Of a stretch of DNA of 64,000 bases, positions 14,391-62,230 are shown piece after piece. The position numbers and the translations under genes are program-made. The notes under the pieces were generated by a model. It was not told where the DNA came from, did not search any database, and saw only the letters and a list, made by a program, of their open reading frames with translations. Position 1 is the stretch's first letter, and the number at the start of each line of letters is the position of its first letter. The DNA comes from Arbacia lixula (lineage: Eukaryota; Echinodermata; Echinoidea; Arbacioida; Arbaciidae). The stretch covers positions 20,369,571 to 20,433,570 of the forward strand of contig OZ022579.1 of assembly GCA_963669155.1 (NCBI GenBank). Reading direction: 5' to 3'.

Positions 14391-14394
14391 TTGT

Positions 14395-14854
14395 GACTAA
14401 CTTATCTTCAGGGTGAACTATCCCTTTAACCTATTTTGGAAAAGTTCATTGACCTCTGACCTTTCAGGGATTTTACCAAATATGTCATCAAAATACCTCC
14501 ATGTAGTGATCTATCTTTGACTTACCATGTTTGGCTGGAATTGAATCATTGCATTTAGATTTATTGTGAAAAATACAAATTTGGGAGCAAATATGTATAT
14601 AGACAAGTTTGCCAATGGACATTGCCCTTTGACCTCTGACCTTTTAGGGATTTTACAAAATATGTCACAAGTCTATTTCCAAGAAGTGATTTATCGTACC
14701 ATGTTTGGTTAGAAATGCATCATTGGATTTGACTTCATTGTGAAAAACATCATTTTTGTTTGCATTTTTTATAAAGTTCATTGAACTGTGACCTTTGACC
14801 TTAATCAGAATTGGCCCCTATTTCCCACAGTTCATTGGTTTCATGCAATGCACG
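14395..14854 (+). repeat. TGACC-rich element, copy 1, main part
   Basis: Recurring GTTCATTGACC, CTGACCTTTCAGGGATTTTA and GTACCATGTTTGG words mark the family described at 28562-30022. This copy is interrupted at its ATGCAATGCACG stretch by the solo LTR (14855-16465) and resumes at 16466. Confidence 0.85.
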
Positions 14855-16465
14855 TGTAACGGATATGAATATATGACCCCATGTAAGATTTATATTTTCC
14901 ATGTGAAAAGTCCCATGTCTTTATATTATAGCACTTTCACATTTTAGAGTAGAACCAAACTAAGCTGCATTACGGCCAGTTCACATTTGACTGGATGTAA
15001 GGTTGTTAAGGAAGAGATTTCTAGGGAAACCTTTAAATGATGACGTACATCTTTTTCAGGTGAACCAGGAGAGTTTAAGGACGAACAAATAATCCAACTC
15101 CAGTAAATCTTGGCCATTTGCAAAGAAAACTAAAAGAGAGAATATTGCCTAGGGGAACGCTCAGTCCCTTACGATGACCGAACCCAAGGACAATGCTTTA
15201 AATCACCAGTGGCTGGACATGTGTTCAAGAGAATTCCACCTCCTCATAGAAGCCTGAACATACACTTGTAAAAGGAATGTTTTGGAGAACTAAAAGGTCT
15301 GTGCGGGAAGTGTATTACTTTTGTTTACAAACACAGCACTTTCTCATTACTATTGTTTATAAACACAGCACTTTCTCTGAAGTGAAAGTAACTGTGACAT
15401 AGACTCTGATTTCTATGAATGAACTGAAGGACAATATTATTTTTCTCTGAACTTGAAGAAGGGGTGACAGGAAGTAGACCTGTTGACCAATAGGAATTAA
15501 TATTTTATACTCCGTCCCCTTTTCTTATACTCTCAACCAATTGTAATCAAGTAAACACTTCTTCACCAGGTGATTGACACACATTGGAACATGTAGTGTA
15601 GGAGTAATATAAAAGAAGGGTGCAAGGAGGAGAGTTTTCAGGCTTTTCAGAGTTTTCCCGGAGTTTCCAGAGTTTTCAGAGTTTCTCCAGAGTTTTCAGA
15701 GTTATTCCAGAGTTATGGAGTTTTAGAGTTATAGAGTTTTCCAGAGATCCAGAATAAGTTAGCCCGGGAGGGGAGAGATGACAACAACTCTACATGGGAG
15801 ATGAGGCTCCAACAGTCTTGTTATAAGTTGGAGATGGAGAGTCCACTTGACTAAGAACAATTTGAAGCACAAACCATACTCGTGTAAAGTTCCAAGCAAT
15901 AACGCCTCCGGATTGAGATGGACAGACTACGAGTATAGTCTTTACAGAACTCTAAGTCTTTGTGAAAATGCAACCAACGTCGTATAATCTGGACATGCAG
16001 ACAACGTCGTAATAACTGGACATGCGGATGACAACAGAGGGATAACTGGACACGCGGAGGACCAGCTTCGGAGACCGGGATGACAGCGTCCGAGATGAGA
16101 CTAGCGATCCAATAATTATTAGAGAGCTCTCGCGCGCGCTTTCCAAATCAGAAGTACCGTACGTACGTGAGTAGATAAAACGTTTTGTACTATTTAATTT
16201 GTGTATCCCCTGTATCATTAAGTAGAATAAATGTTAGCGTTAATGCTTCCCAATGGCATTTAGATGTGTCGGATCATAACCTATGTCGCTAATCGTTATG
16301 TCTTGTCTTCCCAGACCAGAGTGATGCTTCAGTGAGAGTGTGTGGTGGTTTGTGTAAGGACATTAAGGTCAGTCAACCATTTAAATAGTAATGTCTGGAC
16401 CCTAGCATATTACATACAGACCAAACGATAAAGTGGCTCCCCAACCACGAATGCTATGGGTTACA
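14855..16465 (+). mobile_element. Solo LTR, Gypsy-like, 1.6 kb (fossil)
   Basis: The ends are TGTAAC and GTTACA, flanked by a 4-bp direct repeat CACG (14851-14854 and 16466-16469). It splits a TGACC-rich element exactly, so the insertion limits are firm. Parts: U3 with a TATA-like AATATAAAAG near 15607, a leader with tandem GAGTTTTCAGA-type units (about 15632-15740), and a poly(A) signal GAATAAATG near 16226 within R/U5. No internal region or partner LTR is present, so it is a recombination relic. It is younger than the TGACC element it entered. Family assignment rests on LTR form only. Confidence 0.75.
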
Positions 16466-16585
16466 CACGCATGCACCAAATTTGAAGCACATCTAGTGAA
16501 CTGTTCTCAAGATGTTGCGTAAACGGATTTGGGACGGACGGACAACCTGAAAACATGTCTCCAGCCACTTTGTGGCGGATGTATA
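16466..16585 (+). repeat. TGACC-rich element, copy 1, 3' end
   Basis: This continues from 14854 with the family's 3' sequence: CACCAAATTTGAAGC, TTCTCAAGATGTTGCG, GGGACGGACGGACAACC and the terminal hairpin CAGCCACTTTGTGGCGG followed by ATAAAAA. Confidence 0.85.
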
Positions 16586-16762
16586 AAAAGTTCACAGAAG
16601 AGAAAAAAAAGTCAATAATTCAGAAGTTTTAATCTTAACTTGAAATTGTCACTTTAATCATGAGGTATGATGTATCATGGCTATCATGATTTCCATTGAA
16701 CTCTTACAATAGACAAGTTAGGATAAATCAAACTTTAAATTTGCAGTCCCCAACTCCCTTAA

Positions 16763-17286: not shown

Positions 17287-17315
17287 CATGTGTGTGTGTG
17301 TGTGGGGGGGGGGGA
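17287..17315. repeat. GT microsatellite with poly-G
   Basis: TGTGTG units run into a run of ten or more G, between the TTAA MITE and the palindrome array. Confidence 0.85.
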
Positions 17316-17600
17316 AATCTTGATATCAAGAAGTCGAATTCTTGATATCAAGAATTCAATTTCTTGACATCAAGAATTGCCATTGCTTAACGACACAAAA
17401 CCATTTCTTGATATCAAGAATTCGAATTGTTGATATCAAGAAATCGAATTCGTGATATCAAGAATTCGAATTGTTGATATCAAGAAATGGTTTTGTGTAG
17501 TCAAGCAATGGCAATTCTTCATATCAAGAAATCAAATTCTTGATATCAAGAAGTGGAATTCTTGATATCAAGAAATCAAATTCGTGATATCAAGAAATAG
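17316..17600. repeat. Array of a self-complementary 16-mer (TTCTTGATATCAAGAA)
   Basis: Eleven copies or near copies of the perfect palindrome TTCTTGATATCAAGAA occur at about 21-24 bp spacing, separated by short GTCGAA/TCGAAT/AATCAA linkers. Between about 17373 and 17518 the array is itself mirrored: GCCATTGCTTAACGACAC and ACCATTTCTTG on the left reappear reversed on the right. It could form cruciforms at several registers. No gene was seen. Confidence 0.9.
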
Positions 17601-19936: not shown

Positions 19937-20330
19937 TCAGTCCTTTTTAAGTTCAGAGATTACAGCAGAGGAATTATCTGTAGATGATTTCCCCTCACTC
20001 TGCTCCCCTTTCCTCTTCTTCTTTGGTTGATTAAGAAAGCCTATGGCAATGAAAGCAAATGTTAGGATGTGTCCAATGAAGTATGTTGATGCCCAGTAGC
20101 GTATCACAGACTCCCACCACAGCAGTAGGAAGCCGCAGGCAAGGAAGTCAAAGGCCCGCATGCGCAGGAACCAGTTGGCCCAGTCGAAGGCAGTCTGGTT
20201 TCGCTCAGAGCGGAAGGCATGGATCATGAGGTCTTCGGCCCAGACAACCATGGGGACAGTAAGGAAGCTGAGGTAGTAGCCTGGGTAGACACCATGCCAG
20301 TAGGCGCTCACCAACATCGTCACAGAGGTG
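19937..20330 (-). CDS. MBOAT7: MBOAT7 coding exon 7 (catalytic His, stop)
   Basis: The acceptor is CCTTCTAG. The exon reads TSVTMLVSAYWHGVYPGYY with the catalytic His, then WFLRMRAFDFLACGF and RYWASTYFIGH, and a basic hydrophilic tail ending ELKKD and TGA at 19937. No canonical AATAAA was found on this strand in the 450 bp downstream, so the 3' end of the transcript is unresolved. Confidence 0.96.
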
Positions 20331-23300
20331 CTAGAAGGATACAGAGCACACAGCCAGTATTCATTGTTATATACATCGTCTTAATAATCCTATTACCTGA
20401 TTGATTGACAGTCATGACACAGATTTCACCAGTCAAAGAGGGCTGTACATGTACATGTGTGAATTATCATTGCACACCCATACATACAGCGCTAATGCTG
20501 TGCGTGTGTTACACACAGGTCAGGGGCAAGAGGTGGACATCGGATTGTGCTGTCACATTGTTTTCTCAGCAGATTTTTTTTCCAAGAATTTTACAATTGT
20601 GAGACCCATTCTGCACTGTTTCTTTTCCTTGTTTTTTGCCTTTGAAAGATCGGTATTTGGCCAAATGCATATCAACCATATCGATATGAAAGTTGTACCA
20701 CTTCTTATTGATATAACGATATACCGCTGGAGTTTAACGGGCCATAATTGTACAAATATTCTGGTATTTTCTCCTTGTTGTGTACAAATGTTGAAATGCC
20801 ATCTATGTTACATAAATATGTTTTGTAGAGCATCCGAAGAGAACAGTGCTCTAAACATTGAAGATGATACCTATCATAAAGGAACAAAGAAACACAAACA
20901 GACATATTATTACTACCAGAAATGCAATTCCATATTCTGTTTATTCAGTGCAAGGGTTCTCATATTTCTGATACTTGACATATTGGCATAACAGCATCCA
21001 CTCATAAATTATGTTCAAAGTCTATGTAAAAAAGATGTGTTTCCTTGACATTTGACTGGGGAATATTAAATTTATAACTATGTGATATGGCTCTGGTTTT
21101 TTTAACATGCCCTAATTATGTCAACCAAGGGGGTAAAATTAAGAAGTATGTTAGCATACTTCTTATAAGTAATTTCATTATCCAAACGAGTTAGATTTAC
21201 AAGAATTTTAGGTTTCAGGGCTTAATTTAAAGTGGAACCTTGAGACACATCCATGAACAAACCAGTATTTCAATATTTTATAGCAAAATGTTACATACCT
21301 CAAACTTATGATATTTCAGTCATGCTTTACCAACTACTACAACAACAAATGGTGATGTTTACAGCACAGTTCAGAGATTATTTGTGCCAATTTATGGGTT
21401 TCAATTACATCAAATGTCATTTTTACAATGTTTTAAAGCAAAAATAGCTCCTAATATTTGATTTTGACCAAGAAAAGGTTTTATTTTTTATAGAAAATTT
21501 GCCTTTCATTGGGTCAAACTTATTGAATGTAAACATTGGATGATACTACAAAGTTACCATGAAAAAGAATTGGGAAAAACACTATGGTTGAAAATTTTCA
21601 TTTTCAACTCCTAGTATGTTTCGGACGTTACACTGTATTAACATTTCAACATGTCTCAGTTTGTAACTTGTACTGTAAGGACAATGCAAATACATAGTCA
21701 CATTGAGTATTTCGATGCATACCCAAATAGTTAAAGCTTTTTTCCCTTCCCAAATGCACTATACACATTGTTTACAGATGGCTGTTGTTGAAATACGTTT
21801 ATGTATGTGAAGTATTTGTTATAAATGATGCATATTTGTCCTAGAAAGAGACAAATACATAAAATATTGATATAGAAATGAGAAAAAGAACACTACAGAA
21901 TGTACTTTTTTATCCATAAGACTATGGATTATGTTTTGTTTCGGACGTTACAATATGTTAACATTGCAGTTAGATCATAGCATTGACATAGCAGAGACAT
22001 ACAGTGTATTGTACTGTGCTTAGTGTTCATAAATATTCTAGAAAATAGCTAATCCATTGCTTTCATGTAAGGATTGAATAAGTTTACCTGGTAATCAATT
22101 GTTAGATAAAACTTCTCATTACTTGTAATTGTGAAAATATGGCAAGTGGTAATGCATACTTTTGAATATGAGAGTTTCCATGAGATTGGAAAATTTTGTA
22201 TTTGTTAATAATCATTATACATACAGTGGGTGAATGAATACTGTTGTACAAAGGGCTCCTCCTTTATATAATATGTACATTTTGACAGCAGAATGGTTAC
22301 ATAAGCACAAGGAAATACCAGTTGACAAACATGCTGGTGAATTGTAAACCAAATACATGTATGTAACTACACTACTTTAACATCTACCAGACTACTGAAA
22401 TGTGCTATACAGGCTGTAATCATGAATGGAAACGTGCACACTGCTTAGAAAATGTGCACTAAACGTGCTTTAAATGTTGACAATTCTATCCAATAGTTCC
22501 CCTACAAATAGAGTTTATAACCATGTTGAGTGGCCTGAATCATGTTCTCTAATTATGAGATCTTAAGCTAGGAAACACTGAGGTGAAAGGTAAAGTCTAG
22601 TGTAGTTAATGGAGCAAGAATATGACACTTGCTGAGTTATGCAAAATGCCTCATTCATACACGTTGGAGCTGTCCGCTGTAGTTGTCAACCACTGTTGTC
22701 AACAACAAAAAAGAAATATTATCTTGAAGTTGACAGCAATTAATGTACAAAACACTGTACACTTGTATGTAGATACCTTCTTCAAACCAAGCTCAATTTA
22801 TACCTCCTTGTTCATGTACAACTGTACATGTACTATGCATGCTTAAGATCCCTGGCAACCCATAACCTTGCATACATACATCTCTTCTATACTTGCAATT
22901 GTCCAATTAAATATATATTGTATAATACCATATAACGATTCTGTTACTTCATGTCATTTCCTTTTCAAATTGTACTGTTGAAATACAAATAGAACTCAAA
23001 TTGAACTAATTTTAAAGACCCAATACCACAGTGAGAGTTATTTTTATGTGTAGCACATCTTACACACATTTGTGGGCTAATGGTGATTTTGACTGTGCAA
23101 ATAAAAAGACTTCCATCCAAAAAGAAACAATCTTGAGCACAGATTTATAATTGATGAATGTTTTAAATAAGTCCATTAATCCATTAATCATAAGAACTGG
23201 GAATTTCCCAGTCTTAAATCAAAATAGTTGCCCAGGGAGCCCACTTACCGGTTAAATAGATTGTTAATTTCTTGTATCCCTTAAAAACACACTTCAATTG

Positions 23301-26300
23301 TTAAGATATTCTGATCAAATAAAAGTGATGCCTGCTTGATCTTGAGTTTTACTTAAATGGCACCTGTACATGTACTGTGCATGTTACATAATGTATCAAT
23401 CTGGTACTGAGAAATGCACTGAAGTTAACACTTTATAGTATTAAATTACCTTTCTTGAAGCAAAACATATCAAATAAAAAGAGAAAAATACTTCCAGGAA
23501 TAAGAGGAGATGCTAAGATGCTGTTAATATTATATTCCCTTCAAAATTATCTTGAATTTCAACAAAAAATATGTATGTTAACACTATGGTGTAACATCCG
23601 AAACATGCTCTAGATACCTCAGGAAGTATCATTTGTATGGCTTGCAAAATCTTAAATGTATTTATGACTTAAAATGTTTTAATTTATTCAAAAGTGTGAC
23701 TATTTTGCAGCAATCCAACAATGCTATGTATTACATGGACTGTTTTTGCATGTCATTGTAACTGTTATTGTGTAGAAGGTGAGGTGACAGAAATCATGAG
23801 AAATGCATGTTTTTCCTTCTTAACTATGATATTTCTACATTTGAAATGGATTAAAAACATTACAATAGTTTTTTATAACATAAATATTGATGTGAAGGCA
23901 GAACAAAATGTTACTTTATTGAAGAAAGTAGGCAAAACTACGATTTTGTGTTAACAAAAAGTTGTGTAACATCCGAAACACTTTTTATTGGATAATTTGC
24001 ACTAAAAGAAATTTCTTGCATATGAATGGCCTAATTTATGTCTAGAACTGTTGTAGAAGAAGGCATCCTTTGTATCATGATGACTAAATCACTTCACATA
24101 CATTGTTCTCCAAGATATATGCTGAGAAATGATATTATTTGTTTCGGACGTTACATTTGTTTCGGATGTTACAACTGTTAACGGAAAGTTTTACATTTTT
24201 TTGTAAGGAACATGTGATTCAATTCTGCATTAATTTATGCTGTTATGGGAAGCTCTCCTGTGTTTCTTTCAAAATAAAATACTAAATTGTTCCTGCAATT
24301 CTCTGATTTTTTTACAATTCAGAATTAACATTGTTTCGGACGTTACAAAATTGTTAACGGAAAATGAGATCACTTCCTAACTTCATGAAGAATTTGTTGA
24401 ATACCATAGCTGTAGCAACGCATTGCTATTTTCTGTTTAGGCAATGATAAGGAGCAACTAGTAGATATATTATAACACTAATATCATGTGATTAAATGGT
24501 ATTCCAGGGTGGTATTTCATAAAGAAGTGGTTTGCAATAATTGGAAATCTCGAAACTATGGCAAAGTCTCTTTGCCATAATTGGAAATTGCCATAATTGG
24601 CAAAATCGATTTCATAACTCCAATGACAACTTGATCACGAATTGCGGATGGATTACGTACGGGCGCATGCGCACAACGCTCATTTTTGGCCGTCTGCTCG
24701 CCGAAATGGTGGAAAGTCTAACTGCAACATTTTGTTGCTTGCGTAATATAACGTGTGTTTTCAATGGGTTTTGGTTTTGCGATGCGGTGCGTGTATTATC
24801 AATGGACGGTTTTTGAAGACGGCAGTACACTGGTCGGTTGCGTAATTACGTGTGTTTTCAATGGGTTTAGGCTTTGCGATGCGGAGCGTGTATTAACACA
24901 GTTGGCCTTGGGTATGCATTGATGCTCACGCGCACGACCTCCCAGATGACTCTACAGCACGTTCACTAGTCCTCGTCATCATCACCATCATCATCGCTGA
25001 TCAATTTACGTGAGTTATGAATGTTGTCCTTCATATTTCGTTTTGAGGATTTCGAGGGTTACGATACCCGCTTATACTGTGCCACCATCATTTAGAAATG
25101 GGTTCTAACTTCTTTTTGGACCCGATTTGAGCAACAAAATCATGACTTCACGGCCTCTATTTCATTCACAATAAACATGCACATCGTTGCAATGACATGG
25201 GCTAGCAACCATGGGATGCACGGGTGTACTATTTTTCTATTTACCGTTTTAGAACTTAAATTTGCTGAAAGATTAAACGCCACGTAGACCCTAACGTTAT
25301 ATGACAAAACTCTATGCACTGGGCCTAGGCTGAGACTGAGTTAGCAACCTAAATAGTTAGACCCCCGGGCCCCGTCCCGGCGCTAGTTCATAAGTGTATC
25401 CACGGCAGCTTGCGCGACTAGTCACGGCTGGCTAGCCGCTTAGCAGTCCCGGGGCTAGGCCGGCTAGGCTAGGGCCTAGCAAGTCGGTAAAGTGCATAAT
25501 GCACTAATGCACTAATGCAGACATAGAAATCACCTTTTTTTAGACGAATTCAACCTAAATAATTTAGCCACGCAAAACCCAAGATTGCCCATTAGATCTC
25601 TAGTCTTTTTGCCCATTTCTGCAGACATGATTCCACAGGACAGACATTGATTCAATGCAAGATTTTGCTTGAATAAATATCCATATGAGCAGCAGGTACT
25701 TGAGGAATTTCATTGTGTTTTATTTTCATGTTGTTAATGTTAGTTCAGACGATGCAGCACTGGAGGCCACATAGGATGAGGGGCATTCAATCCTCGAGAC
25801 GAAAGGACAAGCCGTCTGCTGGACTCGGATGAACTGATACTAATAAATTGGGATCAGCAAGACAGCAATGTGAGAAAGGTAAAGTTTATGAGAAATAAAG
25901 AAAATAATGAACTTCAAAATGATATGGTATCAATGTACATCCAATACATGTGCCTTTTCAGATGTAGATGTGATGTACAAATTAAATTTGAAGTGTAATG
26001 GGTGGTAAAAATATTCTTGATGATTACAAATATAATATGAAGCACTTAGAGAGTTGAATACAACTTTTAAGTGCTATAAAAGAACATAATTTTCATTATT
26101 TTTGTTCTAAATCGTGCCACAATACTTCAACTCTTGCAATGTGTATGATTTGTGCAGGATCTGGTCTGAAAGTTACTTTGCTGGATATAAATCATAATTC
26201 TCGAATGGGAAAACAAACTGTCAGTTTGACTGATGTAAAATTATGTTATAGGTATTATTTATTCTTTATAGCTGTATAGACTTGTGTTGTGTGATTTTGT

Positions 26301-29300
26301 CACATGTGTGCACATACTACACAAACACAGACAAACACGCCCACACACATAAAGTTAACAAAACGTTAATAATTATTTGCTTGTGCAGTTCTTTAAAGAG
26401 TGATGATCAAGTTAATCTCACATTCCATTTACGTACTGGGAAGTATTTCCTTGTTATGTTGACAACTGGCTGCTAGTGCTGATCTACTGCACTGTGAATG
26501 ATTCAACATTCAACACTTTAATTTTCTTCATTCAGGGCCACACTCAAGTTGGATGGTGTACTGTTCCTAGCTGCAGTGCGTGACGAGGACGTTCATTGGA
26601 GCATGCATGGTAACTTTTCTTTTGTAGATACTCAAAAGGAAAAAATAGTGGGGGTGTCCTCCTCCTCAACAGCCATGCTATTTCATATTTAGATTTGGTG
26701 TATCATTGCCTTAAAGACAGGGTGTCCCATCTGCAAAAGTCATGAAACTATACAGGAGCTAGCAGTATACCCTCACAATAACGGGTATGAAATATCAAAG
26801 TCATAGCTTCACAAACAATTGCCTAGAAACTAGGCTGTGAGGTGCATGAACACAACCCAGTCTGTTAACAACTGTCTGGTTACACAGACTATGCCCCAAT
26901 CTCATCCTCGCTCCGCAGAAGGAAAGAAGCCAGAGGAGCCATGACGTAATTACGGCGCACACTATGTTTTACCAGACTTCGTTGCTAACAGACTGTGTTT
27001 TGTCCATGCGACTCGCAGCCTAGTACCTAGACTACACAAATATTTTCAGGGAAAGTGAGTGAAGCATCCAGGCAAGATTATATCTTTATTAGTCAACTGA
27101 AAACTTTGTGAAATTCCATTAAGATACTGTTAGATTTATGCACTGTTACCGGTAGTTTAACACAGGAGGTAAATCAGTGCAAAGTTTATTTTTGCAATTA
27201 CATTTCTTAGCTTAAAAATGTTAGCTTGGTAATTCCATGGAAAAAAGAGCTACTATTTGACTTAAATAAAACCAATTGTTTCATTTTATTAATCAAAGCA
27301 ATATTTCTGTTTTGAATAGGAGCAGCCTGGATCATGGCCTCTCCAACCCAGGGATCTTTGCAGCAGATGGCCGCTGCTCAGGGATCAACGACCGATGCAT
27401 CTGTAAATACACTTGAAAGGTGACCTGTGAGGAGGAATATTTATAAAATAGCATGAATGGTGACACTATCCTGGAATATGTCATCAATAATCTCTCTAGT
27501 CTGTCACCAACATGTACATGTATTTAGAATTGAACTTGCCGTACACTGTAGCCCCATTGTACATGATTGTATTCAATGATTAGTGGAGTTTTTAATATGG
27601 TCAAGGATATTAAATCAATTCAAGCTGATGGTGTCCATTACATGTAAAGTGTTTGTTTTTATTGTGCATGTGCAATGATGATTTGCTCAATTAAAGCTTT
27701 ATAGTAATGTGCACTGTATAAAGCAAGTGTATTGTGTACTTTGTTAATGACTGGCATTTTCTACATACGGTATACATGTATATGTACAGTTTTTATTTTT
27801 TTAGGAGTGGTGCAACCTCTCTTGGGATCCAAGACACCTCCAATGACTCAGGAGACACTACTATCACTCGGAGAAATGCTTTTAATGTTGATGGCTATCA
27901 CCAATTGCAGCAGTAAATCCAGTAATTGTCACTGTTTCAGAGATTTGCCGCAGTTTCAGACGTTCGCCGCACCTCTTGGAGCTGCGGCGAAAATTTGCCG
28001 CAATTGAGCCAATTATGGCAATTTTTTCTGCGGCAAAAGTTTTATGAAATTGAAATTTGCCGCTAAATCAAAAATTGCCGCTGAATTTCAAGTTTGCCGC
28101 TGATTTTCGAGTTTGCCGTTGCCGTTGATGCTTTATGAAATACCACCCTGGTGAGTTAAATAAGTGGTATGATTGTTACCTGAAAATATAACATCCGAAA
28201 CACCATTTTGAATAGGACTATTTCTGTAGAAAAAAATAGATTGTTCAGAGTCCTTTGAATTTTCTGGAAGTTCCATTCATACTTATTTATTATCACAACA
28301 AAAGAATGACATTGTTTTTGGTTTTCTTTATTTTGCAATCTGTACAAAAAAACACCTTCTTTTAGTTGACAAATTTCCGTTAACAATTGGCTGTTCAGTG
28401 ATATTTTACACAAGTGTAGCAAAATCATAGAATTTTTGTTAAGGTATGGGAGGTCAATCTAGGTCCTTGCTTTAAAAAAAATATGACAACCCAAGTCTAC
28501 ATCTGTGTTCTTAAAAAGTTTGAGGCTCTCAAAGTGCCATTAAGCTTTTAGGGGTATGTTAAAACTAGAGCAATTCGACTGCCGCGCAGTCGATAAATAT
28601 GCCTCCGCCTCTTTGCTAGCTCTATATAGATTTATTCTCAGAAAACCTGTTTGGTGGGCAATGAACCATTTAATTCCTATGTGAAATGAAAATATCATAT
28701 TCTGTTTTTCCTTGTTTGGCCAAGTTTGGTAATGTTCATTGACCTTTGACTTCCAATCTAATCAGTCCGTCTAAAGCCATCCTTGTATCAAGTTTGTTTA
28801 AAATTAGCCAATCTGGGGGTAAAGTTCATTGACCTTTGACCTTTCAAAAATTTTACCCACACTTTTTACCTCCATGACGTGATACATCTCTGTTCCATGT
28901 TTGGTTCAAATTGAACCATTAGTTTTGCATTCAATGTGAAAAATGTTAAATTTGGCTCAATTTGTAGCCAATTTTGGCATAGTTCATTGACCTTTGACCT
29001 CTGACCTTTGAGAATTTTCACCAAAAAATATCATCAGTCTACCCCCAAGTAGTGATCCATGTTTGCACCATGTTTGGTTGGTATTTCACAATTGGATCTT
29101 GATTTATTTTGAAAAATATTACTTTGGGGGCATTTTTTTAGCTATTTTTGGCAAAGTTCATCGACCTTTGACCTTTCAGGAATTTTACCCAAACTTCCAT
29201 TATTCTACCTCCATGAAGTAGTGATACATCTCTGTACCATGTTTGGTTAGAATTGCACCATTGGATTTGGGTTTATTGTGAAAAATATGAATTTGGGGCC

Positions 29301-32300
29301 GATTTTTAGCAAATTGTTGCAAAGTTCAGTGATCTTTGACCTCTGGCCTTCCAGGAATTTCACCAGGAAATGTCACCAGTCTATTCCCAAGTAGTGATCC
29401 ATCTTAGTACCACGTTTCATGAGAATTGCATTTTTGGATTTAGTTTTACGGTGAAAAATATGAAGTTTGGGGCAGTTTTCAGCCAATTTTGACAAAGCTC
29501 ATTGACCTTTGACCTGTGAACTTTCAGGAATTTTATCAAAAATGTCACCAGTCTATTCACAATTAGTGATTCATCTTTGTAAGATGTTTCATGAGAATTG
29601 CATCCTTGGATTTGGATTTATTGTGAAAAATATAAAGCTTGGGGCAGTTTTTAGCCAATTTTGGCGAAGTTCATTGACCTTTGACCTCTGAACTTGCAGG
29701 AAATTTATCAAAAATGTCACCAGTCTATTCACAATTAGTGATTCATCTTTGTACCATGTTTCATGAGAATTGGATCCTTGGATTTGGCTTTATTGTGAAA
29801 TAGGTCAATTACGGGCAATTTTTCACAAAGTTCATTGACCTTTGACGTCAATCAGAACTGACCCCTATTTTACACACTTCATTGGTTCCATGCATTACAC
29901 ACATGTACCAAGTTTGAAGCAAATCTGGTTGACAGTTCTCAAGATATTGCCTAAACGGATTCGGGACGGACGGACAACCCGAAAACATAATGCCTCCGGC
30001 CACTTCGTGGCGGAGGCATAAAAACCAGAGCCATATCTTACAAACATATGGTATTAGTTTAACATTTAACATTTCTTACCCTCCTGCCCCCCCCCCCCCC
30101 TCCCCATCCCCCCCCCCCTCTCACCCCTGCAAAAGTGTTCTACCAAGACAAAATTCCCTTTGATGAAGATGTAGATTAGGCAGTTTAACCTGTATACTAT
30201 GTGAAATCTGGTGAGGTAAATTGAACAAGTCAGTCACAGACAGAATTCTGAGTCTCACCTCCATTGTCTAAGTGGACATCGGACGTAGATGTAAGACTTG
30301 AGCCACCACTGGACAGTCTTGTTCCAGTGCCGCATGCCGTCTCGGAATGTGGTTGTCATGTCACACATGTAAACATCAATATTGTTAATAGTTTCATAGT
30401 CGTACTCAGAGTTTTCCAACTCCTCCTCGCTGAAAAGAATGAGAAAGTGACAAACCAGTATAATTATAGGTACTAGATTACAAATATTTGTATTTGATAA
30501 TTTTGTTTTATCAAAAGGGAAAAATATAATTTGGACATTTGGGAATGTTCACTGACCTTTGACCTCTGTATAACTTAACCTCAAATCTCATCTGCTTCCA
30601 TTGGAATATCCCTCATTGAGTCAAAACTGGACCACTGAATTTCTAGTAATTGCTGAAAATATCCCTTTCTTGTCAATTTTTAGCCAATTTTTCTAAAAAT
30701 TTAGGCAAAGTTCATTGACGTTTGAGCAATTTGACCTCTCATCCCATTAGTCTATCTCCATGTTATTATATCCCTTTGTATCAAGGTTGGTTAATTCAAT
30801 TTCTAGATTTTTGGAGAAAGATGACATTTTGGTCAATCATTGGTAATGATTTTACGCAAAATGTTACTTGTTTTCCTCCATGTTGTGATCTATCTTTGTA
30901 CTGTACCATGTTTAGTTGGGATTGTATGATTGCATTTGAGTTATTGTGGAAAAATAAAATTTTTTGACATTTTTTGCCAGTGCATTGACCTTTGAACTCA
31001 TTCTGATTTTAACCCAATTTTACACATTTCATTAATGTACTTAATTACACACAATACACAATTACATACAGTACTTGAACCAAATCCGTTGAATGGTTCT
31101 CCAGACATTGCTTAAACAGTTTTGGGACAGATATTTTTGGCACAATTTTGCATAGTTCACTGACCTTTGAAAGTTAATCTCATCTGATTTCACCCCGTTA
31201 CACAGTTCATTAGTTTGATGAATGATATTCAGATTTTAAGTTTGAAGCAAATCTTCTGATCTGTTCTTCAGATATTGCTTAAGAGGATATTCCAGCCTGA
31301 ATATAAATTGATTTTAAAAGCAGAATATGAATGAAAGGTGTGATGAAAATCCATCAAAAGAAAAGAAAGTTATGATCTTTATAACTTCACTTTTGAGGTG
31401 ATCTCCTATATGTTGTGTGCTGTATGATTCCATAAATTGCTTTTCTCTGTTTTAATATACATTGTTTTTCTCATATTTTTTCATATTTTCATAAAGTTAA
31501 TGCATAACTTATTTGTGTAAAAATGTGTTTCTAATGGTGTATTAAATGCACAGGTAAAATGATGCTTATCCTCTTGAGGAAGCTGACATTTTCAAACAAA
31601 TTAGTACACAACATATGGGAGAGCACCTCGCACGTGATGTCAAAAAATATAAACTTTCTCGTCCTTCCACAGATTTTCATCAAACCTTCACTAATGTTTC
31701 TTTCATGTGTCTGCTTTTATCAAAACCAACGTATTTTCAAGGTGATCTATCCCTTTAAATGGATTTGGGATGGATGGAAAGACGGACGGACAGACGTATA
31801 TACGGACAAACAATCCAAAACACAATGGCTCTGGCCACTTCTTGGCAGAGGCATAAAAATCATAAGTTCAAGCCGTGCAGTATAAGCATGAATTTTTATT
31901 GCACGTTCATGACTCCAAACAACTATAAATACACAAATTTTGCCTCATAATATGCATGTCTAAAGGTGTCAATCAAAACTAGAGCAATTCGACTGCCGCG
32001 CAGTCGATAAATATGCCTCCGCCTCTTTGCTAGCTCTATTTACATTTATTCTCAGAAAACCTGTTTGTTGGGCAATGAACCATTTAATTCCTATGTGAAA
32101 TGAAAATATCATGTTCTGTTTTTCCTTGTTTGGCCAAGTTTGGCAATGTTCATTGACCTTTGACTTCAAATCTAATCAGTCCGTTTAAAGCCATCCTTGT
32201 ATCAAGTTTGTTTAAAATTAGCCAATCTGGGGGTAAAGTTCATTGACCTTTGACCTTTCAGAAATTTTACCCACACTTTCACCAGTCTACCTCCATAAAG

Positions 32301-35300
32301 TGATACATCTCTGTACCATGTTTGGTTCAAATTGAACCATTAGTTTTGCATTCAATGTGAAAAATGTTAAATTTGACACAATTTTTATTTTATTTTATTG
32401 ACCTTTAACCTCTGACCTTTGAGAATTTTCACCAGAAATATAATCAGTCTACCCCCAATTAGTGATCCATCTTTGCACCATGTTTGGTTGGTATTGCACG
32501 ATTGGATCTGGATTTATTTTGAAAAATATTACTTTGGCGGCAATTTTTTAGCTATTTTTGGCAAAGTTCATTGACCTTTGACCTTTCAAGTATTTTACCC
32601 AAACTTCCATCAATCTACTTCCATGAAGTGATACATCTCTGTACCATGTTGAGTTAGAATTGCACCATTGGATTTGGGTTCATTGTGAAAAATATCAGTT
32701 TGGGACCAATTTTTAGCAAATTGTTGCAAAGTTCATTGATCTTTGACCTCTGGCCTTCCAGGAATTTCACCAAAAAATATCACCAGTCTATTCCAAAGCA
32801 GTGATCCATCTTAGTACCACGTTTCATGGGAACTGCATTTTTGGATTTAGTTTTATGGTGAAAAATATGAAGTTTGGGCAGTTTTTAGCCAATTTTGGCA
32901 AAGTTCATTGACCTTTGACCTCTAAACTTTTAGGAATTTTATCACAAATGTCACCAGTCTATTCCCAAGTAGTGATCTATCTTTGTAATATGTTTCATAA
33001 GAATTGCATCCTCGGATTTGGATTTATTGTGAAAAATATAAAGCTTGGGGCAGTTTTTAGCCAATTTTGGCAAAGTTCATTGACCTTTGACCTCTGAACT
33101 TGCAGGAAATTTATCAAAAATGTCACCAGTCTATTCCCAAGTAGTGATCCATCTTTGTACCATGTTTCATGAGAATTTGATCCTTGGATTTGGCTTTATT
33201 GTGAAAAAGGTCAATTTTGGGCAATTTTTCACAAAGTTCAGTGACCTTTGACCTTTGACCTCAATCAGAATTGACCCCTATTTTACACACTGTATTGGTT
33301 TCATGCAATACACACATGTACCAAGTTTGAAGCAAATCTGGTTAACGGTTCTCAAGATATTGCCTATAAAGAGATTCGGGACGGACGGACGGACGGACAA
33401 CCCGAAAACATAATGCCTCCGGCCACTTCGTGGCGGAGGCATAAAAAGAACAACTCTGTAATGCCATCACCTGTGGATATATCTGTATTACACAAAATAT
33501 TGTCTAATGCAGTAATTCACTTCATCACTAAATTGGCCACCAACCATAAATCTTTGTACACTTTCTTCTCAGGAGTGGGCCTCTTGCCACTTCTGGGTTA
33601 CCTTGGCAACCTCTCCCCCCACATATCTCCCATCCAAGATACAGCCCCTTTTCCTTCCCCCTTGCTTTTTTTTTTTTAATGTAAACAAATAATGAAGTAA
33701 TTGAAGAGTGGTTGATTAACTGATACTGCACAATTATTTTAATTACTTCATCAAAATATCTTTATAACTGTTCACGCATTGTATGGATGTTTATGTAGTT
33801 ACACTGTTTATATATGTTGTATTTATCTGTTTGAACCAGTGGAAGGAGAAGTTTGTGTGTCATAAACTTCATATTTGCCTATAGTATCTCACCTGATCTC
33901 TTTGGGATTGACTGACGGTCCCTGTCCACATCTGGGCTTAAGGACCTTTGGGTAGGCCCCCAGTGTGGCACTCATGCACACACACTCAGAGAGCAGCCAG
34001 GCAGAGTACATACGGGTACGGAAGATTACAAAGACGGGCACCATGTAGAGTGTCCTATGACAAGCAATGTCAATAGAAGAAACAGATTGTAACAATTAGT
34101 GCCCCATCCTATAAAGAGTTGAGATTGATCGCATCTCAACTTGCGATATTGATATTGATATTGACATTGATATTTATTGTAATGCTGTACATTAGAGATA
34201 GGATTGGATTTGCAATCGATTCAGATCTATCAGAACTTTTTATAAGACAGAATTCTGATTTCTTTTTCTAGAGTAAGGCATGTGAACTTCATTTATGTAT
34301 TCAAGCATCGGTGATGCTGGATGACTTCAAGGACGAAAGATTGAACTTTATATAATGAAAGACAAAAGATTAGAAAAACAGACTTTGACTGAGAAACTGA
34401 GAAATATGCACAACATTGAATTACGGTATACTATGGACTTAAAGGCTCTCCACTGTACTTATATTGTTGTCATGTCCCACCAAAATGTATCAGACGTTGC
34501 TTACAAAGATATTTGTACACATTCGGTTACCATACTGACCGGCGTATAAGCTGGGTTGTTTTCTTTAAAATCACGGCAAAGTCTGAGTGCGGCTTATACG
34601 AGGCATTAGCAAAAATCAGGTCTTTCAAATCAGTGAATAACCGGCAGACCCATAGGACTATGCATTGGGTGACAACATTTAACAACAAAATAGATGGCTT
34701 TAATAGGCATCCAGTGTGACACAACTGACATACTGGTAATACCATCTCAATCACATCACCAGCATAATTACCGGTACCAAGAAAGCACCAGGAGTAGTAT
34801 TTGTCTGAGACAACTCAAAGATACCGCGAAGGAGAATGCTACGGCTCAAACTAGCACACTCCGTGAGACAGGGGCCGCCATTGCTAGCCAACGAAAGTTG
34901 AGGGCGTAAACACTTACAATCTCATGTTGATGCCCCCAACGTTCGTTGATGCTAGCTATGCGCTAAGCCATGCCAGACGGCGGTGCTGCAATCCCATTCT
35001 AGTATTAGACGTGGATTGCATCTTCTGAATACAAAACCGACAAAGGAAAGTGTGAATGAGAAGTTTGCACTGCATATACCAGAGCTGCACATCGGTTATA
35101 AAAAGAATATGTGTGTCCCAGAGATCTGATAGCCATACGCACAGCGCAAGAAATTGTAGTGTAAAACAGTACGCTTTTGCTGCTTTTCTGTACCAAACAA
35201 CAATTTTTTTCTGAACAAAGGATGCGGCACAGAAAGTTGCATTTCGCAGCACCTTAGTGTACTATCAAATAGTAATACTTCAACACACAAAACAAGTTTA

Positions 35301-38300
35301 TTGCAGAATTAGCAAACAAAATTTGTGTCCATCAGATACCCCAAATAAGACTCTTTAAACAGTCACATCTCAGATGGTCATGGAAAATTATCATTTTTAT
35401 GCATGGAAATGGAATGATTTTGTACTGCTAGTGTTAAGTTATGATGGTTGTTTCTCTCCAATCCTTCCTCCTGTCAATCCATGAATCACACTGCACACAC
35501 TCCTCACCTATACCAGTAGCCATGTTCGTAGAAGACGTCCTGTTTCAGGTCATCCACACTGAAGAAGTGTGAGAAGAGGAGGAAGAGGCAGCCCACTGGT
35601 ATGAAGATCTTGACACGTGCCAGGATAGGCCCAGTGCTGGGTAGCGATGCGGTGTTTGGGTGGTGGAGCATGTCATAGTATGTCTTGTACTTGAAGTATG
35701 GTCCTGTGTTAGATATAGGCATGCATTGCCATAGAACAAATCAGCATCAAATATTGTAGAGAAGCTCATGGGCAACATAACTATGTAGCTTATGATGATA
35801 CCAACAACATCTACAGAGGAGGAAGCTTAATATTTGTTAACGAATGTTATACAGCCCTGTGGTTCCAAGAAGCGAGTATCATAGCAAGTATCATGGAAGT
35901 TGACAAAAGGATGCTCTATACTGCGACAAGAAATAAAACCACTAATAGTACAGGCAAACCCCGTTATAACGAGCACGGGTATAGCGAGAACCCTGTTATT
36001 ACGAGAAAATTTCTTCCATAGACCTCCGTGTATTCTGTTTTCATATAATGAGATCGGCTATAACAAAATTTCTGCTATGGCGAGGCAAATTCCCAGCCCA
36101 AGAATAAAGAAAAAGAAAGGGAACTGACCCCATTATTACGAGCACTCCCTTTAACCCAGCGAGGGGAACACAACAACAGCACACGCTGTTGAAGTTAATT
36201 GAGCCAATGCATGTGGACTAAGAAATATCCTTTGATCAGTATATCATCTAGCAAGTTCCCTGATCCTTAACCCTTTATTTCCTAGTCTAAAGATTCTGTG
36301 TGCACTGATCACACACACCATGCAAGTACGTGTACGACCAGCCGTGTCCGTCCGTCCGTCTGTCCCGAATCCTTTTAGGCAATATCTTGAACTTGGTACA
36401 TATGTGTATTGCATAAAACTAATGAAGTGTGTAAAATTGGGGTCAAATCTGATTGAGGTCAAAGGTCAATGAACTTTGTGAAAAATTGCCCCAAATTGAC
36501 CTTTTTCACATTTAATCCAAATCCAACGATTCAATTCTCATTAAACATGGTATAAAGATGGAGCACTACTTGGGGGTAGACTGGTGACTTTTTTGGTAAA
36601 ATTCCTGAAAGGTCAGAGGTCAGAGGTCAATGAACTTTGCCAAAATTGACTAAAAACTGCCCCAATCTTTGCATTTTTCAAAATAAATCCAAATGCAATT
36701 GCGCAAATTCGACCAAACATAGTGAAAAGATGGATCATTACTTCGGGGAAGACTGTTGACATTTTTGGTGAAATTGCTGGAAGGTCAAAGGTCAAAGGTT
36801 AATGAACTTTGCAAACATTTATATTTTTCATCATGAACCCAAATCTAAATCTAATGGTGCAATTCTAACCAAACATAGTACAGAGATGTATAACTTCAAG
36901 GAGGTACACTGGTGAAAGTTTGGGTAAAATTTCTGAAAGTTCAAAGGTTAATGAATTTTGCCAAAAATTCACTAAAAATTGCCCCAAAAGTGATATTTTT
37001 CAAAATAAATCCAAATCCAATGGTGCAATACCAACCAAACATGGTGCAAAGATGATCACTATTTGGGGGTAGACTGATGACATTTTTGTTGAATTTCTCA
37101 AAGGTCAGAGGTCAAAGGTCAATGAACTTTGCCAAAATTTACCATTTTTCACACTGAATCCAAATCTAATGATTCAATTCAAACTAAACATTGTACAGAG
37201 ATGTATCACTTCATGGAGGTAGACAGGTGAAAGTTTGGGTAAAATTCCTGAAAGGTCAGAGGTCAAAGCTTTAAAAACTCTGGAAAAACTGGCTAAAAAT
37301 TGCCCCAAAATTGATATTTTTCACAATAAATCCAAATCGAATCATGCAATTTGAACCCAACCTGGTACAGAGATGACTCACTTTATGGAGATAGACTGAT
37401 GGTATATTTGATAAAATCCCTGAAAGTTCAGAGCTCAAAGGTCAATGAACTTTGCCAAAATTTGCTAATTTTAAACAAACTTGATACAAGGATGGATTTA
37501 GACAAGCTGGTTAGATTGGAAGTCAAAGGTCAATGAACATTCCCAAACGTGGCTAAACATGGGAAAACAGAATATGATATTTTCATTTCACATAGGAATT
37601 GAATGGTACATTGCCCACCAAATATACAGATTTTCTGAAAGTAAATCTAAATAGAGCTGGCAAAGAGGCGGAGGCATATTTATTGACTGCTTGGCAGTCG
37701 ATGTGCTCTAGTTTCTGTATGTATTGATCATGTACTGGTATAGCGAGCAATCGGCTATAGCGAGGAAAAAGCATGGGTCCTGACCCCCTCGTTATAACGG
37801 GGTTTCCCTGTAATAATAGTACTTGTGCTACTACTGGGCCCTGTTCTATAAAGATTTGCAATTGATCGCAACTTGACTTGCGATTTGATATTAATTGTAA
37901 CTCTGTCTATCAAAGATAGGTGATTACACATTTGTGATTGATCAATTCAGATCAATCGCAACTCTGTGTAAGATGGGCCCCTGAAAATGATTTGTTGGTG
38001 AAAAATAATATTCCAATTTTATTTGATGTAGGTTGCCTGTTGGGTTGCCACATTTAAGAGTTATTAAATGTTTTGAGCCCATAGAAATGTTTTGACAGCC
38101 TTTCTAAAAGTATAACAAGCAAAGAAAGTATTCAACCCTTATCTCATGGGAACAGGGTTGCCATTGTGTTATGTCTAGGAAATGAGTTAATCAAGGAGCC
38201 AATGGCTTACAGTGCATAAGTCCAATGTTGCTCATTATGGACCAATTGCAAACATCTTTGCTGAATAAAAGTACAATATTTTGTTTTTCAAGATACGGTA

Positions 38301-41300
38301 TGTATGTAAAGGTTTTGAAATAGTTTGGGCAAATGATTTTTTTTTACCTGTAAGTAGTCCCACAAAACAGAATCCATAATGGAAAAGTTCTAGGATGGAA
38401 GGTTCATCTATGACAGGAACATAGCGCTTAGGTTTGTCAGTCTTTCCTTCTTGCTTCTGGTCTGTTTTCTGTGAGAGTGCAGCCTGCCTGATGATGTAGG
38501 AGTCATGGATCTCAAAGGCAACTCCAATTAACTGTGAAAAATAGGTATAGAGTAACAAAGTGATTTCCTCATAACCAATTTCATGCAGGTTTCTGGTTAT
38601 AAACAATATCACTCAAGTGAGAGTTTCACTCGTCCGACATTGTCTAGCAGACTAATATCAATGAGAGTCCCACTGTGATCACCCCAATTAACTCTACCCA
38701 CATAGTTTGGAACAAGTATTCTTGCGAACATGTTTACATGGCATCACACTATAGTACTTTATACACTTCAAGACCTTTGTATCAATTAGTCAATGCCGAT
38801 GATGTGTGTTATATCTAAGCAACACATTAGGATCTAATTTGAACACATAAAAAGCATATTAAAGTTAATGTGCATTTTCTCAACAAATATGGCCCTCCAA
38901 CATTTCACAGGCACATCTGAGTACTGTATTGGAAATCTACCAGGTAGAGGTATGGAATGCCTCAGTTAGCTTGAAGCCAAAAATACTTGACAGTTAGTCG
39001 AGGTACATCTAAGTGTACTACCAGGGTATTGTCATACGCAGTGTACAACACTCTACACTGGCAAGTCAAGGGAGGTATTTTGAAAGTCTTCATATGTTTT
39101 CTCCTAAGTCGCCAACTTGGGAAGCAGCGGCGGATACTGGTGGGACGCAAGAGGTGTACGCCTCCCTTTTTTTTTTCTTTTTCTTTTTTTCTTTTTTTTT
39201 TGGGGGGGGGTAACACATAATGTTCCTATTGATTATTGTGCATGTCATTGTGCTCTTCAAAAGGTCTGCCCCCTCCCCATCTCCAAGTCCTTGATCCACC
39301 TCTGGGAAATGCCTACGAGAGACAAAAGTTGATACTCTAGATTTCCTACTTCCTAGGATTTTGCTAATGCTTAGTAGGGAGGGTTTGACCGTGCCCTATC
39401 TGAATTTCATAACCAATGAAGGAGAATGTTTTAAGAGCCAATCGCAATAAAGAAATCTTATTGGGACTTTCCTAGGTTTCTTTGTTACTCTGTGGACATC
39501 AATCATGCATGAGCAGATGATTGCTGCTTGTATGTTTCCATGTAATGAATGACATAGGATAGCGGGGAGCTCTCCAAAATAACTCCACCATGGGCGCATT
39601 CTGGAATAATAAATGTCTTAACATTATTATTTGCATAAATTGCAATATCTTCAATTAAGCTTCTCCCGAAAGTGAGGACAAATCTTTGTGTTGGATTAAG
39701 GAAGAAGGGATAGACTTAAAGACAGACAGTCCCTTTTTCAGATCAGCACAAAACCATCGAAACATTGGCAAAACATATAGAGAAGTGTTAGCAAACTCTA
39801 TATTCACAATTTGAAACTGATACGTAGCGTAAAATTCAAATAATGCACGTAAACAACGTCTGATTAATAGTCTTTACCTCAGGCTCTTAGCAGTTTGTTT
39901 TGAAATATCTGCTTTATTAATTAATCTGTTTCTTAAATTATAAAACGCATTATGAAAAAAATTGTTCTATGGAAGGAATCATCTCCAAAGTTTGGTAGTT
40001 ACTCATAAAATTAGGATTTCACACACGGATAATAACCACATAGATACTGTAACAAAGACTAATACTTTTTTCGTGGTACGAAAAAAGTCGGTTTGAAATT
40101 TAACGGCTGAAATTTTTTACATATACAGAAAGCTTCAACATGCTATATTCTTAGAAATGGTCTTGAATCACACTTTCTTCAATTTATGATCGTGATAAAC
40201 GATTTCAAATTTTAAGCTTGCAAAAGGGACGGACAATCTTTAAAGTATGGATTTAGTGAAACATATGATTGTAAAAACATATAATTAGGACATTTTGACC
40301 GCTAAATGTAGCAGTAATGTTTAAATTCCTCCCCAAGTTAACAGTGTGACCTTATGAGATATGTTGAAGTAAAGTGAGCCAATGCATGTGGACTAAGAAA
40401 TATCCTTTGATCAGTATATCATCTAGCAAGTTCCCTGATCCTTAACCCTTTATTTCCTAGTCTGAAGATTCTGTGTGCACTTAATGTGCCAAAATCTGTC
40501 ATTTTTGTGAGACAGTGTGACTTTCATTTCGGAAAAAACTTGTCTTTATCCTTCTCACACAGCAGGGAATCCAGTATTTGGAGAATGGGTGAAGAAAGGG
40601 GAAATCTATCTAGATTTTAATGAAAATTATTTCTGGGATGATTTCAATTTTGAAAGGGAATTTTAGGCATACACCCAGTAGTATTAAGGATAGCATGCTC
40701 CATCCTGTAAATGAATGAAAAACAAGTCAGACAAAAAATCTTGGAACCAGAAGGGATTTGAACCTGCAATCTACTGCTTACTGGGCAGCGACTTAACCAC
40801 GCGAGTGTTTTCTAGTTCACGGATCAAGACAAGATAACAAGGAAACAAACATCTAAGTGTCTCAGTCAAACTGACTCATTAATATTCATGAGTAGTCGGC
40901 CTTAAGGACATCCGGATAGATTTGAGTGAAAAGGCTTTCTTGGGTAATTTTAAGTTTAAAAAATAATAAATCTATAAGACCAGATGTGTTGCTCCCAAAG
41001 TAGGGTACACATGCCTCTTGTGCCCCTGCCTGGATTCACCACTGTCACATACTAACCTTTAAAGTGAGAATAAGCTGCACAACATTTGAAAAGGCTGTGG
41101 GGCGCTCAAATCCCAAGAAAGGTCCGGCTGCTCTAAAAAATGCCAGATAGGAGAAGGAGAAGACGAAGCTCCACACATGACATTTCCTAGAGATGGAAAG
41201 AAGAATAAGAAAGAATAAGAAATCAACAAGATCTAAACCTAAACTGTGCATCAGTTTCAACTTCCACAAAAAAAAGAAAAAAAAAGAAAATGTTGATATC

Positions 41301-55489: not shown

Positions 55490-56566
55490 GAGGACCACTA
55501 TGACTGCCACACAGTCAATTAATATGCCTCTGCATCTTTGCTAGCTTCACTTGGTTGACATTAATCATCTTCTCAAAAAACTTTTAAGGTTTTTTGTCAA
55601 TGTACCTTTGAATTAACATTTTTCTATTTTCTAGTATTTGCAAAAAAAAAAAATAATTTTTTTGCCATGTTTAGCAAAGTTTAGCAATGTTCATTGACCT
55701 TAGACCTCTTACTTCTTTGACTTCCAATAAAATCTAAATGTAGTCATCCATCCTTGTATCAAGTTTTTTTCAACATTAGATTATTCAATTCATTTATTAG
55801 GAAAAACAGATATTGGTAATTTTTAGCTTAGTTTTGGTGAAGTCCATTGACCTTTGACCTTTCAAGAATTTTACCCAAAATCTATCAGTCTTCCTCCATG
55901 TAGTGATCCATGTTTGATTGGAATTGGATGATGGGATTTGGATTTATTGTGAAAATAATAAATTTGGGGGCAATTGAATCAATAGATTTGGATTTCTTAT
56001 GAAAAATATAGATTTGGGCACAATTTTTAGCCAATTTTGGAAAAGTTCATTGAAGTTTGACCGTTCAAGGATGTTACCAAATATGTCATCAGTCTACATC
56101 CATGAAGTGATTTATCTCTGTACCATGTTTGCTTGAAATTTCATTATTGAATATGAGTTACTGCAAAAAATATAAATTTGGGGGCAATGTTTCACTAAAT
56201 TTGGCAAAGTTCATTAACTTTTGACCTTTCAGGGATTTTACCAAAAATGTCATTGGTCTGCTGCCCCCTAGTAGTTTTGCATCTTTGTACCGTGTTTGTT
56301 TAGAAATGCATCATCTGATTTAGATTTATGGTGAAAAAGGTCAATTTTTTGCAATGTTTACAAAATTCATTGACCTATGACCTTTGACCTCCATCAGAAT
56401 TGACCCTATTTTACACAGCTCATTGGTTTCAAGCAATGCACATATGTACTAAGTTTGAAGCAAATCTGCAGAACAGTTCTCAAGATATTGTGTAAATGGA
56501 TTTGAGACAGATAGACAACCCGAAAACATAATGCCTCCAGCCACTTTGTGGCGGAGGTCTAAAAAG
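55490..56566 (+). repeat. TGACC-rich element, copy 6
   Basis: It starts with ATATGCCTCTGCATCTTTGC (diverged 5' end; GACTGCCACACAGTC hairpin) and ends ATGCCTCCAGCCACTTTGTG with GCGGAGG. About five or six units have GTTCATTGACC-type cores. It is shorter and more diverged than copies 2 and 4. It ends about 0.5 kb from the CDR2-like stop codon. Confidence 0.85.

Positions 56567-61960: not shown

Positions 61961-61991
<31 letters not shown>

Positions 61992-62194: not shown

Positions 62195-62230
<36 letters not shown>

What the first reader, a model, noticed from the sequence alone, without database searches (positions are those of the whole stretch)
28562..30022. TGACC-rich repeat family carries arrays of DR1 nuclear-receptor sites at about 170-bp spacing
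Seen: six copies in 42 kb, with units of about 170 bp, each holding TGACCTTTGACCT or TGACCTTTGACCTCTGACCT. Known: AGGTCA-n-AGGTCA (DR1) is the high-affinity site for RXR heterodimers and HNF4-type receptors. Inference: each copy delivers several phased DR1 sites, near nucleosome spacing, and two near-intact copies plus others sit in introns of a lipid-remodelling enzyme gene. It may spread regulatory sites or simply be repeat chance.
Basis: partly seen in the sequence, partly recalled or inferred. Interest (0 to 1): 0.72.

Follow-up and report, generated by a model that had tools for sequence, protein, structure and literature searches.

The report
Sea-urchin HINE with receptor-site repeats
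By their anatomy these TGACC-rich repeats are the inner tandem repeats of a non-coding mobile element of the Helentron (HINE) kind, in DNA closest to that of sea urchins; a 20-base box shaped like a nuclear-receptor docking site is the slowest-changing part of each repeat and would be carried wherever the element lands, though no receptor binding has been tested.

Summary
In detail: the window has 49 near-matches to TGACCTTTGACCT against 1.8 expected; 47 lie in six copies of one family between 14.4 and 56.6 kb, in units of about 170 bp.

Read on the opposite strand, the given interval is an apparently complete HINE (non-autonomous Helentron): T-rich end, 12-bp subterminal inverted repeat, its inner complement, GTCC microsatellite, ~170-bp central repeats, second subterminal repeat, 17-bp palindrome, CTAGTTT end. 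Four of six copies lie in introns of an MBOAT7 gene closest to sea urchins.

The slowest-evolving stretch of the unit is AAGTTCATTGACCTTTGACC: AGTTCA-t-TGACCT (IR1 geometry) overlapping TGACCT-t-TGACCT (DR1). This is strong between units, weak between corresponding units of different copies (p 0.03 to 0.21), and changes inside half-sites do not favour receptor-tolerated bases (2 of 26). So the box was likely kept in the mobile lineage; receptor binding and host use are unshown. The ~170-bp spacing is the common size for HINE repeats.

A new member of a known kind with one interesting feature. The genome-wide count could not be made: the tool did not answer in 13 tries.

The parts
28562..30024 (-). 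Copy A: apparently full-length HINE, 1463 bp (the finding's interval)
   Evidence: ends and HINE modules read; 92% identical to copy B over 1488 aligned columns
30009..30020 (-). 5' subTIR TATGCCTCCGCC, 4 nt from the T-rich 5' end (TTTTT)
   Evidence: 12-nt perfect inverted pair with 28598-28609
29990..30001 (-). inner IR GGCCGGAGGCAT, complement of the subTIR; the two form a hairpin
   Evidence: sequence; folds as one stem
29964..29975 (-). GTCC microsatellite (3 units in A, 5 in B)
   Evidence: sequence
28732..29847 (-). central tandem array of copy A: 8 boxes, units about 170 bp (outer units diverged or shortened)
28598..28609 (-). 3' subTIR GGCGGAGGCATA, 36 bp inside the 3' end
28576..28592 (-). 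3' palindrome CGACTGCGCGGCAGTCG, 14 bp inside the 3' end (CTAGTTT)
   Evidence: sequence; hairpin predicted
28822..28841 (+). conserved box AAGTTCATTGACCTTTGACC, exact; further boxes of A start at 28732, 28980, 29154, 29322, 29495, 29667 (exact), 29828
   Evidence: 35 places in the window within 4 mismatches of this 20-mer, all in family copies
31976..33447 (-). Copy B: apparently full-length HINE, 1472 bp, 8 boxes; units match those of A one to one
36354..37714 (+). Copy C: HINE with intact 3' module, lost 5' module
55502..56565 (-). Copy D: older, shortened copy with both end modules diverged
14425..14854 (-). Copy F, array part
16466..16589 (-). Copy F, 5' module, separated by an LTR-like insert at 14855-16465
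30514..31283 (-). Copy G: old diverged array; a 5' module at 31755-31862 probably belongs to it
   Evidence: joining the two pieces is inference
20033..41197 (-). Host gene MBOAT7 (partial): matches at 41042-41197, 35522-35713, 33907-34056, 30174-30428, 20033-20335; copies A, B, C, G lie between them
   Evidence: closest proteins Diadema antillarum 71%, Lytechinus pictus 68%

Best explanation
By its anatomy the feature is a HINE (a non-autonomous Helentron) whose ~170-bp central repeats each carry a conserved 20-bp box of nuclear-receptor-like half-sites, and it likely spread by rolling-circle copying with enzymes of a Helentron partner, taking the whole array of boxes along. Shown here: the end modules, the six copies, the one-to-one order of units in A and B, and the box as the slowest-evolving stretch of the unit. 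Inferred: rolling-circle movement and the unseen partner; that the box was held by purifying selection in the replicating (master) lineage, most likely because a host DNA-binding protein, plausibly a nuclear receptor of the RXR/HNF4/COUP type, reads it in the cells where the element is copied; that inserted copies, including those in MBOAT7 introns, then mostly decay without selection. Host-gene regulation by these copies is possible but not indicated by anything measured here.
For: All structural modules of a HINE occur in the published order and spacing (definitions read). A and B: all 8 units of A have the same-numbered unit of B as nearest neighbour, so the array travelled as a block. Box: best 19-column window of the unit, 0 of 20,000 column permutations reach it, next window P 0.18; in the leave-one-window-out test it has 1.88 mean mismatches of 20, 22 of 26 units within 3, best of 35 windows; lowest-divergence windows within A, B, C and all 38 units start at columns 79, 76, 75, 79, that is at the box. 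The most diverged outer units keep it: 14 outer or old units have 17-20 of at most 20 box positions intact while the rest is at 61-84%. Composition does not explain it: box G+C 40%, rest 33%, no CpG in the unit consensus, and all four bases are better kept in the box. Precedents: Helitrons that spread MSL-complex sites in Drosophila miranda (PMC4384637, abstract and passages) and HNF4alpha sites in Alu repeats (PMC3252374, abstract).
Against: Between corresponding units of different copies the slowdown is weak: A-B 6/152 against 63/911 (p 0.21), A-C 10/119 against 94/654 (p 0.08), B-C 8/113 against 99/655 (p 0.03; not independent). An earlier whole-copy comparison gave p 0.00025 for A-C but paired some non-corresponding units. 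Of 26 single-base changes in the three half-sites only 2 are receptor-tolerated, against 2.9 expected at random (counted), so nothing points to a receptor in particular. The first masked test ranked the box last of 7 windows, because 7-bp gains and losses of one heptamer break the alignment; only the test that allows a shift puts it first. The windows overlapping the box but shifted (69, 73, 85, 89) score worse. No autonomous Helentron was found in the window (Pfam on 10 of 256 ORFs), no empty site could be tested.
Confidence: 0.82

Rival explanations
1. The box is maintained for the array itself, not for a transcription factor: a short motif that promotes unit duplication or recombination (as proposed for CENP-B-box-like motifs in satellites), or one needed by the Helentron enzymes.
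For: The variable part of the unit next to the box is a heptamer gained or lost in 7-bp steps, and units have been duplicated in the lineages (A6/A7 pair at 10%). Conserved boxes inside otherwise dissimilar HINE monomers are reported in oyster clusters CL1/2/10/13 and CL4 (PMC7492417). The CENP-B-like proposal was seen only as a reference title.
Against: The large deletion that leaves the first two boxes 90 bp apart in A and B does not end at the box (sequence). HINE ends, not central repeats, are the parts shared by all HINEs.
Confidence: 0.3
2. Co-opted regulatory sites: the MBOAT7 intron copies act as receptor-responsive enhancers and host selection keeps their boxes.
For: Four of six copies lie in introns of one lipid-remodelling gene; boxes are intact in many copies (35 places within 4 mismatches).
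Against: Young copies A and B show no significant slowdown of the box against the rest; dispersed HINEs in introns and near genes are common in oyster; long introns collect transposons anyway. No chromatin, expression or cross-species data.
Confidence: 0.06
3. Pure inheritance: the box is just a slow patch by chance, or kept by slippage within the heptamer run, with no function.
For: Between copies the effect is not clearly significant; DR1 is the automatic product of duplicating the heptamer TGACCTN; the DR1 13-mer is 10th of 158 windows.
Against: The best-kept columns extend 8 bp upstream of the heptamer run into AAGTTCAT; the permutation and leave-one-out tests.
Confidence: 0.25

Closest known systems
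Cg_HINE elements of the Pacific oyster (Vojvoda Zeljko et al. 2020, PMC7492417; parts 1-3 of 7 and passages read)
   Same: Order of modules: 5' subTIR of 11-12 bp, complementary IR, GTCC-type microsatellite, short array of 160-180 bp satellite-like repeats, 3' subTIR, palindrome; T-rich target, no TSD; intact and truncated copies in and near genes.
   Different: Different host (echinoderm-like here), no nuclear-receptor-like box is mentioned in the text (no TGACC or GGTCA in the main text; figure sequences not held), so sequence relation is untested.
HINE and DINE-1 elements of mite and Drosophila (Thomas et al. 2014, PMC4067079; 12 of 18 passages seen)
   Same: subTIR 2-4 nt from the 5' end (here 4), 3' palindrome 8-35 bp from the 3' end (here 14), T runs at the ends; DINE-1-like elements said to exist in sea urchin (Tsp, Cohen et al. 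1985, seen as a citation only; the paper is not held).
   Different: Here the 3' subTIR begins 36 bp and ends 48 bp from the 3' end (published range about 38-60 for HINE-Mo); long central array dominates the element.
ISX/ISXR Helitrons of Drosophila miranda (PMC4384637; abstract and passages)
   Same: Works like: a Helitron carrying protein-binding motifs along chromosomes.
   Different: ISX sites bind the MSL complex and are under host selection, shown by ChIP; nothing of the kind is shown here.
HNF4alpha sites in Alu repeats (PMC3252374; abstract and outline)
   Same: Works like: nuclear-receptor sites delivered by a transposon.
   Different: Alu is a SINE; binding there was measured.

Membership tests
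HINE (non-autonomous Helentron) | subterminal inverted repeats of 11-15 bp, the 5' one 2-4 nt from the end | tested here: met
   TATGCCTCCGCC / GGCGGAGGCATA, 12 of 12 nt, 4 nt from the 5' end in A
HINE (non-autonomous Helentron) | inner IR complementary to the 5' subTIR, and a microsatellite | tested here: met
   GGCCGGAGGCAT 7 nt inside the subTIR, GTCC repeats
HINE (non-autonomous Helentron) | palindrome between 3' subTIR and 3' end | tested here: met
   CGACTGCGCGGCAGTCG, 14 bp from the end in A and B; one-mismatch forms in C
HINE (non-autonomous Helentron) | insertion in T-rich sequence without target-site duplication | tested here: inconclusive
   T runs at both ends of A and B, no duplication seen in the flanks; empty sites not testable without the genome
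HINE (non-autonomous Helentron) | no coding capacity | tested here: met
   longest stop-to-stop frames inside A are under 80 aa
HINE (non-autonomous Helentron) | shares ends with an autonomous Rep/helicase Helentron | not tested
   The genome search did not complete (13 tries); none among 10 ORFs scanned in the window
Canonical Helitron | 5' TC, 3' hairpin about 11 bp before CTRR, insertion between A and T | tested here: not met
   3' hairpin followed by CTAG fits, but the 5' end is T-rich without TC and both ends carry subTIRs
Nuclear-receptor response element (DR1/IR1) | two RGKTCA half-sites as direct repeat with 1 bp or inverted repeat with 1 bp | tested here: met
   30 DR1 and 32 IR1 consensus matches
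Nuclear-receptor response element (DR1/IR1) | changes confined to receptor-tolerated bases | tested here: not met
   2 of 26 single changes, 2.9 expected at random (counted)
Nuclear-receptor response element (DR1/IR1) | bound by a receptor and responsive | not testable with these tools
   no binding, chromatin or reporter data

The most novel reading that the evidence does not exclude
The HINE carries its own docking station for host nuclear receptors: a composite IR1-DR1 box repeated about eight times per copy, kept by selection on the mobile lineage so that receptors open the element's chromatin in germ or early embryonic cells, and every insertion seeds a receptor-responsive array in an echinoderm genome.
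Probability: 0.15. Interest if true: 0.78.

Novelty: new member of a known kind. Interest (0 to 1): 0.4.

Why it matters
Central repeats of HINEs are usually treated as passive satellite cargo. Here one stretch of the repeat is clearly kept better than the rest and has the geometry of a receptor site. If a host protein reads it, the repeats would be part of how such elements get copied, and each insertion would add several sites at once; that can be tested with a gel shift and existing sea-urchin chromatin data.

Tried and rejected
Repeat chance for the site count: rejected. MITE or TIR transposon: the 12-bp inverted repeats are subterminal, flanked by a palindrome, with no TSD seen, so HINE fits better. 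Canonical Helitron: 5' end does not fit. Receptor-specific constraint: looked for in half-site changes and not found. A spread to viral contigs: AAGTTCATTGACCTTTGACCT gave 0 matches in viral contigs. Papers: TGACCTTTGACC (14 papers; the two echinoderm ones looked into are primers), GGTCAAAGGTCAA (3 papers), nuclear receptor with transposable element and DR1, HINE/Helentron with regulatory terms, sea urchin with Helitron or Helentron: in these listings I saw none that reports receptor-like boxes in HINE repeats; most were seen as listings only, and subscription papers are not held. Rfam: nothing in the window.

Weak or changed results: one search was a script error, redone. One search's A-C test paired non-corresponding units and is replaced. 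One search's masked alignment put the box last of 7 windows because of 7-bp indels and is replaced, in which 35 of 39 windows had at least 8 usable units. The unit model was seeded with 10 units chosen at DR1 sites of A and B, which favours the box; one search is the check without that bias.
Full report
Observation. TGACCTTTGACCT with up to two mismatches occurs 49 times, 1.82 expected in shuffles. Seventeen are exact, and 47 of 49 lie in six copies of one repeat family. Tandem Repeats Finder gives units of about 172 bp. Self-comparison shows copy A (the finding) 92% identical to copy B over 1488 columns and 76% to copy C over 1445.

What it is. On the opposite strand copy A reads: TTTTT, subTIR TATGCCTCCGCC, 7 nt, inner complement GGCCGGAGGCAT, GTCC repeats, about 120 bp, the array, then about 120 bp, 3' subTIR GGCGGAGGCATA, palindrome CGACTGCGCGGCAGTCG, and CTAGTTT. 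These ends recur: the 5' module at five places, the 3' end at three and the 3' subTIR at four, each with at most 0.22 expected. This is the published plan of HINEs, the non-autonomous Helentrons: in oyster they have a 5' subTIR of 11-12 bp, a complementary IR, a GTCC-type microsatellite, satellite-like repeats mostly 160-180 bp, a 3' subTIR and a palindrome (PMC7492417); in mite and Drosophila the subTIR sits 2-4 nt from the 5' end and the palindrome 8-35 bp from the 3' end (PMC4067079, passages). Here the values are 4 and 14. The flanks of A and B show T runs and no visible duplication. The autonomous partner and empty sites could not be sought, because the genome tool did not answer in 13 tries.

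History of the array. A unit model found 38 pieces in the window. All 8 units of A have the same-numbered unit of B as nearest neighbour; in C six units correspond to A units in order, shifted by one, and A6/A7 look like a later duplication. So the array moved as a block and changed slowly. Some copies are old: F is split by a 1611-bp LTR-like insert, G adjoins a MITE-like insert.

The box. Columns 76-96 of the unit (AAAGTTCATTGACCTTTGACC) are kept best. The best 19-column window has 92% identity to the majority base, and none of 20,000 column permutations reach it; the next separate window gets P 0.18. That model was seeded at DR1 sites, so I masked each of 39 windows in turn and found units without it: of 35 windows with enough units the box was best, with 1.88 mean mismatches of 20 and 22 of 26 units within three; the best window not overlapping it had 2.70. 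Within A, B and C and over all 38 pieces the lowest-divergence 20-column window overlaps the box (starts 79, 76, 75, 79). Fourteen outer or old units keep 17 to 20 box positions while the rest of the unit is at 61-84%. Base composition does not explain this.

What the box looks like. AGTTCA, t, TGACCT, t, TGACCT: an IR1 overlapping a DR1. Strict consensus counts in the window are 32 and 30, against 0.2 and 0.07. The exact DR1 13-mer is only the tenth of 158 windows. Within the three half-sites I counted 26 single-base departures; two are of the kind receptors tolerate (consensus RGKTCA, from general knowledge), 2.9 expected. So the geometry suggests receptors, the pattern of change does not single them out.

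After insertion. Corresponding units of different copies: A-B 6/152 in the box and 63/911 outside (p 0.21), A-C 10/119 and 94/654 (p 0.08), B-C 8/113 and 99/655 (p 0.03). Deep comparisons between units show a stronger slowdown (ratio 0.22 in B, 0.33 in A, 0.56 in C). This fits a box kept in the mobile lineage with little or no upkeep in dead copies, but does not prove it.

Setting. Pieces of one gene match human lysophospholipid acyltransferase 7 (8erc) in order along the minus strand from 41197 to 20033. A lies in the intron between the matches at 30174 and 20335, B and G between 33907 and 30428, C between 41042 and 35713. The joined peptide is 71% identical to Diadema antillarum and 68% to Lytechinus pictus, then 60-63% to sea stars (top 120 of 141 listed), so the host is most likely a sea urchin. 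The enzyme remodels phosphatidylinositol (general knowledge); a link to lipid receptors is tempting and unsupported.

Verdict. A HINE with satellite-like repeats: a known kind, new member. The conserved receptor-shaped box is real and worth a binding test. Regulation of MBOAT7 is not indicated.

Noticed in passing
14855-16465: 1611-bp LTR-like insert (TGTAAC...GTTACA) with 4-bp duplication CACG (14851-14854 and 16466-16469) inside HINE copy F; single copy in the window.
   Followed up: partly
about 31284-31753: MITE-like insert with inverted ends of about 140 bp (70% alike) and TTAA at the borders; its end also matches 14381-14426.
   Followed up: partly
8296-11103: 936-aa frame with a reverse transcriptase domain (RVT_1, 1e-32), likely a non-LTR retrotransposon; the frame 7211-8218 before it has no Pfam match.
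   Followed up: no
17314-17598: Thirteen tandem copies of a palindromic 22-mer (GAATTCTTGATATCAAGAAATC).
   Followed up: no
57047-58114: 356-aa open frame on the minus strand with no Pfam or PDB match.
   Followed up: partly
61961-62236: GT-rich microsatellite of 276 bp.
   Followed up: no
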